Source of the DNA: Flavobacteriaceae bacterium | GTDB taxonomy: Bacteria > Bacteroidota > Bacteroidia > Flavobacteriales > Flavobacteriaceae | Length of the DNA stretch: 64,000 nucleotides | Assembly: GCA_030830005.1 (NCBI GenBank) | Contig: JAURNV010000027.1 | Coordinates: 1 to 64,000 of the forward strand | Reading direction: 5' to 3' | Part shown: positions 59,741-63,536 of the stretch, one piece after another | How positions within the stretch are numbered: the stretch's first letter is position 1 | Layout: every line of letters starts with the position of its first letter | Notes under the pieces: generated by a model | Seen by the model: the letters and a program-made list of their open reading frames with translations, nothing else | Databases searched by the model: none | What the model was told of the DNA's origin: nothing | Program-made: the position numbers and the translations under genes

Positions 59741-59761
59741 AAAAAGGAAGTGTGTACACTT
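59741..59761 (-). terminator. Terminator-like hairpin after the crRNA-like repeats
   Basis: Minus-strand AAGTG-TACA-CACTT followed by CC and five T. It begins two bases after the second 13-nt repeat, so a transcript running from cas9 through the repeats would end here. The stem is only 5 bp, so it is weak. Confidence 0.5.
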
Positions 59762-59762
59762 T

Positions 59763-59827
59763 TCAAATCACAATACTATACTTATTAAAATACGTGTACT
59801 GAAGTTGTTTTGTATCAAATCACAATA
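59763..59827 (-). CRISPR. Two-copy CRISPR-like mini-array with short repeats
   Basis: The 13-nt sequence TATTGTGATTTGA occurs twice on the minus strand, at 59827-59815 and 59775-59763, 39 bases apart (period 52), directly after the cas9 stop. TTGTGATTTG is how I recall type II-C repeats of flavobacteria beginning. The first nine bases are exactly complementary to ATCACAATA in the tracrRNA-like gene at 63276-63284; after a UU/UU mismatch G-A pairs again. The copies diverge after 13-14 nt, so these are shortened repeats. Candidate guides are the ~20-38 bases before each copy (59828-59865 and 59776-59814). No other repeat is seen nearby. Confidence 0.6.
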
Positions 59828-59865
59828 AATTTTAACTAAACAAAACAATAATAACAGTGTCTTCC

Positions 59866-62265
59866 TTAATGCATCTCTGGAGCTTTTAATTGTTTATAAA
59901 ACGGCCTAATATTCCCTAGTAAATCTATAGTGATTTTAAAGGGGTTATGTGTAAGCCAACCCGTCTTTTTGTCGCCAAAGTTCAATATACGGATGTAATT
60001 TGGGTAGGTTTGATTATATGAATCTAAGTCATAAACCTGTCTAAACTCGTAATATTTACTTGAAATCCGTTGCACTTTATATACATTTTCCCATAAACTA
60101 TCGCCTTGGGCCAAGCGTTGGTAAATTTCTTTTTGACTTAACCCTAAAATAAAACAATCATTACTGTGAAGTGTAGTCACAACCATTCGTCCGTCGTCGG
60201 GAAGTTGATAAAGCGGCTCTTTATTCCTCACACGCCTTACTGCCTCCCAAAAAGAAACAATATTCTCTTGATATACATTATCTAGAGATTGATATATCAT
60301 TACATGATGATTATTACGAGGGTTCACATACTTGTTTTGTTCAGGTGTTAATTGTACCGCATTACTCACATTTTCTCGAATGCGCACCTTTCTAACAGGC
60401 ACTTTATCTCCTCGTTTGTTTGGTAAAAAAATAGTGGTTTCCCAGCCGTACTCTGTTTGCTTAGATAGTGCATTTTTTGGAATCTTACCATTTATAAATC
60501 CTCCACATAAATCTATTTGATCGTAAATCAATTCCCGAATGCTTTGATCAACAACTTTACTTACTTGCTTTGCCGTTGTTAGTGAATTGATAGGTTTTTT
60601 AATGTGAAATGAATCTGCTTTTCCTGCACCTAAATGTTTTCCGTAAAAACTGTCTTTATGCAATTTTCCTCTTGGAGAAGGGCTAAAAACCATAGCCTTA
60701 GAATTTTGAGGAATTTTTCTAAGAACGGTATGGTTTGTGTCAATTGAAACTGAAATACTACTGTACGCATCAAGAGCATCACGAGTAAATTGTTTCCAAG
60801 GAGATGGAAAAACTTCTCTGTATGGTATGGGCTCATATCTGTTCCAATGCCTTAATTCATCTAGATATTTAGGCTCGTTCATTGCCGTTACCAACGCAAT
60901 GAGAGCTGATTCTCTAACATCTAAATGCCTTGGTTTAACCATAAAGGATTTGGGCGAACTAATACCCCATTTTCGGCGCAAACTACTGATAGAATTTCCC
61001 CTTGCAGCAATAACATTAGGGCTAACGCGGCTTAAAAAATTTTTTACTTTAAGAGCAATGTGGTGTTGGTCATTAAACTCTTGTCCAATACTGTCTTTAG
61101 CATATGTTGTCAACACAAAATGCCTGAACTTTTGGTAGGGCGCATGCTTAGCCGAACCCTTTAACAATTGTTCTAATACACGTGTTTTTACTCCTTCCCA
61201 AACCCCAGATGGTTGTTTACTAAAATATTCAAATGGGGTGACATTCAAAATATTCTCTTTAAAGTAGCTCATACACAAGGCCTTATTCCTGTCTGAATCA
61301 TTAAAAAATCTATTCCAAGGTTGTATGTAAACTATGGAGACTTGATCTGTGTAAAGCTGCTCATATGGAATAGGGTCACCCGTATATGGACACATTTTAT
61401 TCCACTCTAACCATAATTTGTATTTAATCAAATTGCTATGAGTAGGATTTTGACCGGCATCAACAACAGCATCATGAATTTGGGGCAGCTCTTGTCTACG
61501 TACTTTTTTTGAGATGTATAAGGATTTTCGCTGTTTCGCATTTACCTTAACCTCGTTTGAAAGCACAAAATTTATATTATCTATTATGCCGTATTCGGAG
61601 ATTAGTTTATTGACCAACTTACGAAGTTCAAAAATGGGTTTTTGAGCTACTGGTTTAAAAATGCGCAGTATATCCTGGTCTTCTGCTGGACTTGAGGGCA
61701 GTAAATCTTGCTTATCTGCATGCTGATGGATTAAATAGAGTTTTTTTGGGTTAAGCTTAACACTAAATGCGTCAAAAAAATGTGATAACCAAAGTGCCCC
61801 ATGGATTTTATCCTCCTCTATGGATGCTTCTATGAAATATATAATTGCTGATTTTTTTTCATCATCTATGTTGTCCCAGCATTTTTCACCTAAAGCGTTT
61901 TTTACACCTCCTAAAATGATTGCGTTTTTTGTGTCAATTCCGTCTCTAAGGAATTTCAAAATCAATCGTGCAGCTTTCATGCTTATTTTAGAAAATCCTG
62001 GCTTAAGCTTAAACACGGCTAAAGCTTTGGCTTTATCAATTGTCAATCCCCATTTACTTCTCAATCTTTCAACCAATTTCTCGTTGTCGGTATAGAAGTG
62101 TAAATCATGCCAAAGTTCATGCTGTTCTTTGTCAGAAAATTGCAAAAATTTTGTTCCAAATGCTGTTTTACGAGCCAAATGAGTAATTGTATGAGCTAAA
62201 AATATTTTTTCTCCGTCTTCATAATTAAATGCTTCAAAATCGTCTATTTCTAATGCGACTCTTAC
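59866..62265 (-). CDS. cas9: Nuclease-dead Cas9 homologue, C-terminal two thirds (after frameshift)
   Basis: The frame is open from 62265 and ends at 59866. The only bacterial start inside it is a TTG at 62178, which would cut into a conserved stretch (FNYEDGEKIFLAHTITHLA), so this is not a separate gene. Counting from that TTG: the RuvC-II Glu is Val205 (NINFVLSNE against HIEMARE-type motifs); the HNH Asp/Glu-His is Val283-Tyr284 (SIVYIQPWNR) while the HNH Asn is kept (Asn298 in DRNKAL); RuvC-III has VRESALIALVTA with neither the His nor the Asp. Flanking structure is well kept: KLWLEWNKMCPYTGDPI, GKLHKDSFYGKH and VPVRKVRIREN of the C-terminal PAM-interacting region. Tyr for His and Val for Asp/Glu exclude cleavage by known chemistry. 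Confidence 0.85.
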   Translation of the reverse strand, partial: VRVALEIDDFEAFNYEDGEKIFLAHTITHLARKTAFGTKFLQFSDKEQHELWHDLHFYTDNEKLVERLRSKWGLTIDKAKALAVFKLKPGFSKISMKAARLILKFLRDGIDTKNAIILGGVKNALGEKCWDNIDDEKKSAIIYFIEASIEEDKIHGALWLSHFFDAFSVKLNPKKLYLIHQHADKQDLLPSSPAEDQDILRIFKPVAQKPIFELRKLVNKLISEYGIIDNINFVLSNEVKVNAKQRKSLYISKKVRRQELPQIHDAVVDAGQNPTHSNLIKYKLWLEWNKMCPYTGDPIPYEQLYTDQVSIVYIQPWNRFFNDSDRNKALCMSYFKENILNVTPFEYFSKQPSGVWEGVKTRVLEQLLKGSAKHAPYQKFRHFVLTTYAKDSIGQEFNDQHHIALKVKNFLSRVSPNVIAARGNSISSLRRKWGISSPKSFMVKPRHLDVRESALIALVTAMNEPKYLDELRHWNRYEPIPYREVFPSPWKQFTRDALDAYSSISVSIDTNHTVLRKIPQNSKAMVFSPSPRGKLHKDSFYGKHLGAGKADSFHIKKPINSLTTAKQVSKVVDQSIRELIYDQIDLCGGFINGKIPKNALSKQTEYGWETTIFLPNKRGDKVPVRKVRIRENVSNAVQLTPEQNKYVNPRNNHHVMIYQSLDNVYQENIVSFWEAVRRVRNKEPLYQLPDDGRMVVTTLHSNDCFILGLSQKEIYQRLAQGDSLWENVYKVQRISSKYYEFRQVYDLDSYNQTYPNYIRILNFGDKKTGWLTHNPFKITIDLLGNIRPFYKQLKAPEMH

Positions 62266-63244
62266 TTTTTTTAAACAAAAAACTTGAAAAGTGAGTAGCT
62301 ATCTTAATCGCTTGCTTTCGTTGGTGGTGATTAAGTGGTTCGCCATATAATTTAATGGAGTCAACCCAACAATAGATATTAAACCATTCATTAAGAGGAT
62401 GGCTCTGCCACATTGTTTTTTTCCCTTTTTCAAATTCACAAGAGGTTGCGCTATTCCCTTGTTTTCTATATTGCGCAGGGCGTTGAGAATACAAAATTCC
62501 TTTGTTACTCTCTTTTCCTAATAATGATTTTCTAAAGTCTTTGTCAAGAAATTCGTGATGGTGTTGCTGTTGCTTTAGTATAGCATCCAACTCATTTAGG
62601 TACATGCTGCGGCTTAGGTACCGATTTCGTATACGCGCTTCATTGTAGGAGTAGGGAGCACAATGAGTTGGTAATAGCGAATTTAAATATTCTCCTAAAT
62701 ACTGATTTTTTAAAAAATGTTTGGTGTCGTTAATGCCTCGACGATTTGCTAAAGGAAGTCCATTTAGTAAAATATTGGCATTTGTAGAATCAATACCATT
62801 CATTATTTTACCTCTACGCTGAGCAAAATGATACAACACTCTACCTAGCTCTAGCCTTGATAATTTCTCGTGAATTCCAATAGCACGTAACTCATATGGA
62901 TTTAAGGCCATCCATTGGTTCATTTTAATAGAAAGGGTTTTATGCTTATTGTCTTTGCTCCATTTAGAAAGCTCTTTAAGTGTAAGTGGGCATAACTTGT
63001 TTGATGCTAAAAAAGAGAGTGTGTTTTGCTTTCTAAAATTCTTACGCATTTGAAGCTTCCTCACATTTCTAACTTGGGTTCGAAGAGTTGCATTAGAAGT
63101 TTCACGCTCTCCCTCACCCAAATAATTTAAAAAAGAGGAAAAAACTCGCGTACCCATAGCGACAATACGAGGATTGGTAGAATATCTTACAAGCGACCAT
63201 CCTATCGATTCTGTTCCAACATATATGCCTAACGTTTGTTTCAC
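62234..63244 (-). CDS. cas9: Nuclease-dead Cas9 homologue, N-terminal part (before frameshift)
   Basis: A 336-codon frame from a GTG at 63244. RuvC-I reads LGIYVGTESIGWSLV: the catalytic Asp of LGLDLGTNSIGW is Tyr8, with Gly10 and the SIGW end conserved. The Arg-rich bridge helix (TLRTQVRNVRKLQMRKNFRK) spans ~53-72, and recognition-lobe landmarks LYHFAQRRGKI, LYSQRPAQYRKQG and SHPLNEWFNIYCW match type II-C Cas9. The last ~11 residues (KSKSRIRNRRF) are out of frame: at the run of seven A (62266-62272) the rest of the protein continues in the +1 frame. With one A fewer the whole product is about 1125 residues. The bases before the GTG show no TAnnTTTG box. Confidence 0.85.
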   Translation of the reverse strand: MKQTLGIYVGTESIGWSLVRYSTNPRIVAMGTRVFSSFLNYLGEGERETSNATLRTQVRNVRKLQMRKNFRKQNTLSFLASNKLCPLTLKELSKWSKDNKHKTLSIKMNQWMALNPYELRAIGIHEKLSRLELGRVLYHFAQRRGKIMNGIDSTNANILLNGLPLANRRGINDTKHFLKNQYLGEYLNSLLPTHCAPYSYNEARIRNRYLSRSMYLNELDAILKQQQHHHEFLDKDFRKSLLGKESNKGILYSQRPAQYRKQGNSATSCEFEKGKKTMWQSHPLNEWFNIYCWVDSIKLYGEPLNHHQRKQAIKIATHFSSFLFKKSKSRIRNRRF

Positions 63245-63266
63245 TTAAAATTTTTTTTTATATTTG
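63235..63266 (+). promoter_or_regulatory. Promoter of the tracrRNA-like gene
   Basis: TTTG (-33, 63235-63238), 20 bases, TATATTTG (-7, 63259-63266): a full consensus match on the plus strand. The -33 box lies within the first codons of cas9 on the other strand, so anything binding here would affect both genes. Start expected near 63271. Confidence 0.78.
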
Positions 63267-63269
63267 TGA

Positions 63270-63341
63270 CATCTTATCACAATAAGGCTAATGCCGTGGA
63301 CAACATGTCCAGCGTCCCGCTTAGGTGGAACATTTTTTTTT
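63270..63341 (+). ncRNA. tracrRNA-like small RNA divergent from cas9
   Basis: About 70 nt with the modular layout of a type II-C tracrRNA: anti-repeat ATCTTATCACAATA (63271-63284) running into AAGGC as in known tracrRNAs (ACAAUAAGGC), nexus hairpin GGC-TAAT-GCC (63286-63295), hairpin GGACA-ACA-TGTCC (63298-63310), and a last hairpin GTCCCGC-TTAG-GTGGAAC with one mismatch (63314-63331) followed after one base by T9 (63333-63341), a good terminator. The anti-repeat is short and pairs with the two repeats behind cas9. Identity is from architecture, not from a database match. Confidence 0.78.
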
Positions 63342-63430
63342 GCTTCACTTTGATTTTAATTAAAGGGGAAGCCGAGTAGATTCTCGACTTGACCCCTTAT
63401 AATGTAGCATAACAATCAAAGCAAAAAATG
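63331..63430. repeat. 100-bp imperfect inverted repeat enclosing a GC-rich hairpin
   Basis: CATTTTTTTTTGCTT-CAC-TTTGATT (63331-63355) is complementary to AATCAAAGCAAAAAATG (63414-63430) apart from short insertions. Inside lies the hairpin 63363-63398. The left arm contains the T9 of the tracrRNA-like terminator. It could be a MITE-like insertion or an RNA fold. Confidence 0.5.
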
Positions 63431-63536
63431 TCGGTTCATCTGCTACGAAAGAACCTATATTCGGGCAAAAAAGGTAGTGGGCACAACTGCTCTTTTCAAA
63501 TTGGTTGTCTAAATACGATTCCCACTTGTAGCAAAT
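63361..63536 (-). ncRNA. Possible structured RNA on the minus strand
   Basis: Three nested stems are possible: ATTTGCTAC/GTAGCAGAT (63536-63528 with 63446-63438), AGTGGG/CCCACT (63526-63521 with 63481-63476) and ACAAC/GTTGT (63508-63504 with 63487-63483). A hairpin follows, AAGGGG-TC-AAGTCGAG / CTCGGCTT-CCCCTT, with TTTAATT after it, terminator-like. In two stems one pair is T-G on this strand but A-C on the other, which points to a minus-strand transcript. A 60-codon frame across it looks spurious. Relation to cas9 unknown. Confidence 0.4.

What the first reader, a model, noticed from the sequence alone, without database searches (positions are those of the whole stretch)
59763..59827. Two short direct repeats behind cas9 match the tracr anti-repeat
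TATTGTGATTTGA occurs twice with a 52-base period between the cas9 stop and a terminator-like hairpin. TATTGTGAT pairs perfectly with ATCACAATA of the tracr-like RNA. If the repeat is taken as 22 nt, the spacer before the second copy is 30 nt, the usual type II-C spacer length. This is a minimal, apparently fixed guide set, with the repeats trimmed to the part that pairs with the tracrRNA.
Basis: partly seen in the sequence, partly recalled or inferred. Interest (0 to 1): 0.8.

Follow-up and report, generated by a model that had tools for sequence, protein, structure and literature searches.

The report
Nuclease-dead Cas9 with two fixed guides
A group of marine bacteria has kept a Cas9 protein that has lost its DNA-cutting residues, together with its helper RNA and two tiny guide RNAs that have hardly changed across two genera, which suggests that evolution turned an immune scissors into a gene switch.

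Summary
The two direct repeats are real. They are the 5' ends of a type II-C CRISPR repeat, cut back to the part that pairs with a tracrRNA, and each follows a short guide that does not vary. The adjacent Cas9 belongs to a clade that has lost nearly all catalytic residues of both nuclease domains. The clade has one origin (support 100/100) and sits at the same place (ppiD-cas9-DUF456) in two Flavobacteriaceae genera. Synonymous sites in cas9 are mostly saturated, yet dN/dS is about 0.1, and the 24-nt core AGTTAAAATTT-ATTGTGATTTGAT is identical in nine species of both genera. Cas1 is absent from all 11 carriers and present in all four active controls. Best reading: a stand-alone, fixed-guide, nuclease-dead Cas9 that works as an RNA-guided DNA-binding regulator, like scaRNA/tracr-L or TldR but with the nuclease lost. 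The target was not found: no conserved chromosomal site matches guide 1 over 10 nt or more, and sites at TonB-receptor gene starts are a weak, post hoc lead. In the window's species cas9 carries a +1 frameshift, and many species of the genus have lost the system.

The parts
62234..63244 (-). cas9, N-terminal half (336 aa): RuvC-I Asp replaced by Tyr (GIYVGTES), arginine-rich bridge helix kept
   Evidence: TIGR01865 137 bits; alignments
62266..62272 (-). A7 run with a +1 frameshift that splits cas9 in this species; relatives have A6 or an equivalent and an open frame
59866..62178 (-). cas9, C-terminal half (listed from TTG; the frame is open up to the A7 run): RuvC-II Glu, HNH Asp/Glu-His and RuvC-III His/Asp lost
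   Evidence: TIGR01865 211 bits, HNH_4; alignments
59827..59846 (-). guide 1, GTTTTGTTTAGTTAAAATTT; 20 nt invariant in the genus, 3' 11 nt (AGTTAAAATTT) invariant in two genera
59814..59826 (-). repeat 1, ATTGTGATTTGAT, truncated II-C repeat that pairs with the tracr
59805..59848 (-). hairpin TTGTTTTGT/ACAAAACAA enclosing unit 1; one U-A/C-G covarying pair in the genus, replaced by GACCTT/AAGGTC in the sister genus
59775..59783 (-). guide 2, AAGTATAGT (9 nt invariant in the genus; GAGAATAGT in the sister genus)
59763..59774 (-). repeat 2, ATTGTGATTTGA (ATTGTGGTTTGA in the sister genus)
59744..59867 (-). region enclosed by AAGGAAG (59861-59867) and CTTCCTT (59744-59750); possible closing stem of the RNA that carries both units
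   Evidence: little covariation
63235..63266 (+). Bacteroidota-type promoter TTTG-N20-TATATTTG of the tracr
   Evidence: motif scan: the only hits in the scanned loci are at tracr, in four species
63271..63341 (+). tracrRNA with shortened anti-repeat (ATCTTATCACAAT), nexus (AAGGCTAATGCCGT), hairpins and T-run; ends approximate
63404..63474 (.). conserved block with a possible pseudoknot (GTAGC/GCTAC, GGTTC/GAACC); present in all genus loci that keep tracr, not seen where the system is lost; strand and role unknown

Best explanation
A type II-C CRISPR-Cas9 locus has been turned into a fixed RNA-guided DNA-binding regulator. A Cas9 without catalytic residues binds a tracrRNA made from its own promoter; the tracrRNA pairs with one of two short crRNA-like RNAs encoded behind cas9, whose repeats are reduced to the tracr-pairing 12-13 nt. 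The complex would use the 9-11 nt next to the repeat as its guide, form a partial R-loop at chromosomal sites and block transcription there without cutting. Shown here: loss of the catalytic residues, purifying selection, invariant guides and tracr anti-repeat, tracr promoter, absence of Cas1, the same locus in two genera. Inferred: expression, complex formation, DNA binding, repression. Unknown: the target.
For: Catalytic residues of HNH and RuvC lost in all genus members and in the sister genus, single clade 100/100. Open 1122-1163 aa frames in five species although synonymous sites are mostly saturated; dN/dS 0.05-0.12 in the genus where dS can be estimated. Guide-repeat units invariant while the flanks diverge. 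Tracr, promoter and shortened anti-repeat kept. Same synteny in both genera. Cas1 absent in 11 of 11 carriers, present in 4 of 4 active controls. Published precedents: 11-bp scaRNA repression by FnCas9 (PMC12231574), tracr-L (PMC11417352), 6-nt guides of TldR (PMC13418256).
Against: No conserved chromosomal target found for guide 1. cas9 is frameshifted in the window's species and in G010, truncated in G008 and G015, lost in others. No expression data. G013 keeps the RuvC-I Asp, although its other catalytic residues are gone.
Confidence: 0.65

Rival explanations
1. Decaying relic: an old CRISPR-Cas9 locus is being lost in streamlined genomes, and tracr and repeats are leftovers without function.
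For: Frameshifts or truncations in G000, G010, G008, G015, G279 and loss in G002-G004, G006, G009. No Cas1, no array.
Against: Intact frames of 1122-1163 aa with low dN/dS in five species of two genera; non-coding units invariant over the same divergence. Relics elsewhere in the genus do decay (G003, G004). Loss in some lineages does not explain conservation in the others.
Confidence: 0.12
2. The complex acts on RNA, or on its own locus: the two units in the cas9 3' region bind tracr and control cas9 or tracr levels, or the guides pair with mRNA leaders.
For: Units lie in the 3' region of cas9 on the same strand and may fold into hairpins with guide and repeat partly paired. A 9-nt guide-1 match lies in the tracr promoter of G000 and G011. 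The 10-nt core is complementary to the leaders of several genes.
Against: The promoter match is not conserved in the other species. Pure structure would allow compensatory changes inside the guide, but none is seen.
Confidence: 0.12
3. Interference by binding against a mobile element, as for nuclease-dead type V-C and V-M: the guides block a phage or plasmid without cutting.
For: No chromosomal target found; patchy retention is typical of defence. The 2025 classification describes V-C and V-M as interfering by blocking transcription (PMC12669027).
Against: The 19-nt guide 1 has no excess of matches in IMG/VR: 8 stretches against 12 for the reversed control. Fixed guides without adaptation are unlikely to track an evolving element across two genera.
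Confidence: 0.08

Closest known systems
scaRNA-FnCas9 of Francisella novicida (type II-B; PMC12231574)
   Same: Cas9 with tracrRNA and a short fixed RNA; about 11 bp of pairing gives repression of a chromosomal gene instead of cutting.
   Different: FnCas9 is catalytically active and also serves an immune system; here the nuclease is lost, Cas1 and the array are gone, and the target is unknown.
tracr-L of Streptococcus pyogenes (type II-A; PMC11417352)
   Same: A Cas9-bound fixed RNA represses transcription by binding DNA.
   Different: There the guide is part of a long tracrRNA, the target is the cas promoter and Cas9 is active; here the guides are separate units with trimmed repeats, and no conserved match in the cas9/tracr promoter was found.
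TldR, nuclease-dead TnpB repressors (PMC13418256 and its reference 5)
   Same: Nuclease inactivation with guide RNA kept; very short guides (6 nt) suffice; RNA-guided transcription factor.
   Different: Different protein family (TnpB, RuvC only), phage-encoded or associated with its target gene; here Cas9 with tracrRNA, chromosomal, target gene not adjacent or unknown.
Phage-encoded II-C2 Cas9 variant with inactivated RuvC (PMC12669027)
   Same: A natural Cas9 with an inactivated nuclease domain.
   Different: There HNH appears active, the gene lies in phage genomes and an anti-CRISPR role is proposed; here both domains are inactive and the locus is chromosomal.
Nuclease-dead type V effectors V-C and V-M (PMC12669027)
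   Same: Crispr effector without cutting that acts by binding and blocking transcription.
   Different: Cas12 with arrays for immunity; here Cas9 with two fixed guides.

Membership tests
Type II-C CRISPR-Cas | Cas9 homologue of full length | tested here: met
   TIGR01865 over cut-off for both halves; 1122-1132 aa frames in relatives; about 38% identity to active flavobacterial Cas9
Type II-C CRISPR-Cas | catalytic HNH and RuvC residues | tested here: not met
   IEHI to IVYI, RuvC-II Glu lost, RuvC-III His/Asp lost, RuvC-I Asp lost except in G013
Type II-C CRISPR-Cas | tracrRNA with anti-repeat and nexus | tested here: met
Type II-C CRISPR-Cas | adaptation genes (cas1, cas2) | tested here: not met
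   Cas1 absent in 11 of 11 carriers, present in 4 of 4 active controls; cas2 not searched, and the genus genomes are incomplete
Type II-C CRISPR-Cas | array of full-length repeats with variable spacers | tested here: not met
   only two 12-13 nt repeats at the locus, with invariant guides; arrays elsewhere in the genomes were not searched for systematically
scaRNA / tracr-L type Cas9 regulation | fixed RNA that recruits Cas9 by tracr pairing or as part of tracr | tested here: met
   predicted pairing and conservation only; expression not tested
scaRNA / tracr-L type Cas9 regulation | partial match (about 11 nt) to a defined chromosomal promoter or leader | tested here: inconclusive
   no conserved target found; weak TonB-receptor lead
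TldR | TnpB-derived protein | tested here: not met
   the protein is Cas9 with an HNH domain
TldR | inactivated nuclease with retained guide RNA | tested here: met
   works like it, is not a member
Nuclease-dead RNA-guided transcription regulator (general) | binds DNA and changes transcription in cells | not testable with these tools
   needs RNA-seq, ChIP-seq or reporter assays

The most novel reading that the evidence does not exclude
A natural, vertically inherited dCas9: a Cas9 without nuclease activity in either domain, kept for its binding alone, with a private tracrRNA and two hard-wired guides, acting as an RNA-guided transcription factor of a bacterial chromosome.
Probability: 0.55. 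Interest if true: 0.9.

Novelty: new variant of a known kind. Interest (0 to 1): 0.8.

Why it matters
Engineered dCas9 is a standard laboratory tool, and natural nuclease-dead TnpB and Cas12 regulators are known. I found no report of a chromosomal Cas9 lineage that lost both nucleases yet is under purifying selection (preprints and most subscription papers could not be searched). If confirmed, it would show that the dCas9 solution arose in nature, how repeat and anti-repeat shrink once adaptation is gone, and which genes a bacterium controls this way. It makes the question of Cas9 exaptation directly testable with one protein and three short RNAs.

Tried and rejected
(1) Target by 19-mer with up to 3 mismatches in 17 genomes: no conserved site. 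The recurrent TTTTGTTTAGTTTAAAGTT was read at one locus (L082) as the glnK/amtB junction, with mismatches in the PAM-proximal part. (2) 11-mer and 10-mer seeds: conserved hits were mostly coding (rplO, mreB). (3) otsA upstream site shared by G011 and G016: otsA was not found in the window's genome and several other carriers, but is present in genomes without cas9. (4) Porin leader in G014 (16-nt match): not kept in orthologues. (5) Autoregulation at the tracr/cas9 promoter: a 9-nt seed match only in G000 and G011. (6) TonB-receptor gene starts: the 10-nt core lies antisense at 4 of 19 sites in G059; in the 46% of G059 read in full, 2 sites against 0.014 expected from shuffled decamers (P = 0.002, post hoc), but no excess for shorter seeds and no conserved regulon; A/T-rich leaders and signal-peptide codons may explain it. 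(7) Viral protospacers: fewer than for the reversed control. (8) AlphaFold of the G016 protein: shallow alignment, mean pLDDT 55, not used. (9) Rfam: nothing of note.

Full report
What is there. On the minus strand behind cas9 the window has GTTTTGTTTAGTTAAAATTT-ATTGTGATTTGAT and, 52 bases on, AAGTATAGT-ATTGTGATTTGA. On the plus strand, divergent from cas9, lies a tracr-like RNA, ATCTTATCACAATAAGGCTAATGCCGTGGAC..., with the nexus and T-run terminator of flavobacterial tracrRNAs. Its anti-repeat is cut back to about 13 nt. A Bacteroidota promoter (TTTG-N20/21-TANNTTTG) puts the start at that point in four species, and these are the only hits to the motif in the loci scanned. Repeats and anti-repeat have therefore shrunk together.

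The protein. The ORFs 62234-63244 and 59866-62178 are the two halves of one Cas9, split by an extra A in an A7 run; relatives have A6 or an equivalent and an open frame. Against active flavobacterial Cas9s of the same family, every genus member read over these regions lacks the HNH Asp/Glu-His pair (IEHI becomes IVYI), the RuvC-II Glu and the aligned RuvC-III His and Asp. RuvC-I Asp is His, Phe or Tyr, and is kept only in G013. The sister genus (G059, 99% complete) is dead as well: Asp to Ser, Glu to Thr, the same VY in HNH, and RLHAMH in RuvC-III. The HNH Asn (NK after DDS) and the arginines of the bridge-helix region are kept.

Relatives. Ten of 17 genus genomes have cas9 sequence, and the locus is syntenic, with DUF456 next to the units. 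In G059 and G279 it lies between ppiD and DUF456-ruvC-hemW, as in the window, so the locus predates the split of the two genera. The dead proteins form one clade (100/100). Synonymous differences are saturated between most species; where dS can be estimated within the genus, dN/dS is 0.05-0.12. A frame of more than 1,100 codons does not stay open over such a divergence without selection.

The guides. In ten genus loci, 34 nt of unit 1 and 22 nt of unit 2 are invariant, except for one change in a cas9 relic, while the flanks differ in sequence and length. In the sister genus unit 1 shares only AGTTAAAATTT-ATTGTGATTTGAT, and unit 2 reads GAGAATAGT-ATTGTGGTTTGAT. The stem that encloses unit 1 changes from GTTTTGT/ACARAAC to GACCTT/AAGGTC, with one covarying pair inside the genus. 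So guide 1 has an 11-nt core and guide 2 about 9 nt. The unit-1 22-mer has no exact copy outside these two genera in 397 family genomes, and the 2-mismatch hits are at control level; it has none in viral contigs. Genomes that lost cas9 lose or blur the units: G002 keeps only unit 2, G003 a decayed unit 2, G009 a fusion of tracr and unit 2, while G006 keeps both, apparently after a recent loss.

No immune system around it. Cas1 is absent in all 11 carriers tested and present in all four active controls. No array was seen at the locus. Cas2 was not searched.

Mechanism. The shortest reading is RNA-guided binding without cutting. About eleven base pairs suffice for scaRNA-directed repression by FnCas9 (PMC12231574), six nucleotides for TldR (PMC13418256), and tracr-L shows that Cas9 can repress a promoter with a fixed RNA (PMC11417352). 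Expression, complex formation, binding and repression are inferred here.

Target. It was not found. Searches with the 19-mer, the 11-mer, the 10-mer with orthology tests and at the locus itself gave no conserved site. The 10-nt core lies antisense at the starts of four TonB-dependent receptor genes in G059 and of single receptor genes in G016, G014 and G279 (TonB plug domain confirmed for three of the G059 proteins). In the part of G059 read in full this is more than shuffled decamers give (2 against 0.014, P = 0.002). I noticed it after the fact, shorter seeds show no such excess, and most sites are not shared by orthologues. It is a lead, not a result.

A further part. A block of about 70 bp next to tracr, with a 20-nt stretch that is invariant in six loci and a possible pseudoknot, is present in every genus locus that keeps tracr, and was not seen where the system is lost. 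Its role and strand are unknown.

Limits. All genus genomes are incomplete (64-89%); the window's own gene is frameshifted; many species have lost the system. Preprints and most subscription papers could not be searched, so novelty is provisional. From memory, not checked here: a nuclease-dead Cas12f with an associated sigma factor has been described in Bacteroidota.

Noticed in passing
window 63404-63474; also L044-L048, L057: Conserved block GTAGCATAACAATCAAAGCA... with a possible H-type pseudoknot (GTAGC/GCTAC and GGTTC/GAACC; GGCTC/GAGCC in G013). It tracks the presence of tracr in the genus and was not seen in the sister genus.
   Followed up: partly
window 62266-62272: cas9 of this species has an A7 run (+1 frameshift) where relatives have A6 or an equivalent; it could be a mutation, slippage or an assembly error.
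   Followed up: partly
L152 and L151 (G279): In G279 cas9 seems to have a large internal deletion: tracr, the C-terminal part and both guide units remain, on two contigs.
   Followed up: partly
L050 (G008), L051 (G015): cas9 is cut down to its last 141-148 codons and tracr is not found, yet both guide units are intact; probably recent losses.
   Followed up: no
L150 4150-4450 and L152: Another conserved non-coding stretch lies downstream of tracr in the sister genus (G059 and G279), different from the pseudoknot block of the window's genus.
   Followed up: no
L210, L213, L217, L223 (G059); L251 (G016); L361 (G014); L382 (G279): The guide-1 10-nt core lies antisense at the starts of TonB-dependent receptor genes more often than shuffled decamers predict; post hoc and not conserved as a regulon.
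   Followed up: partly
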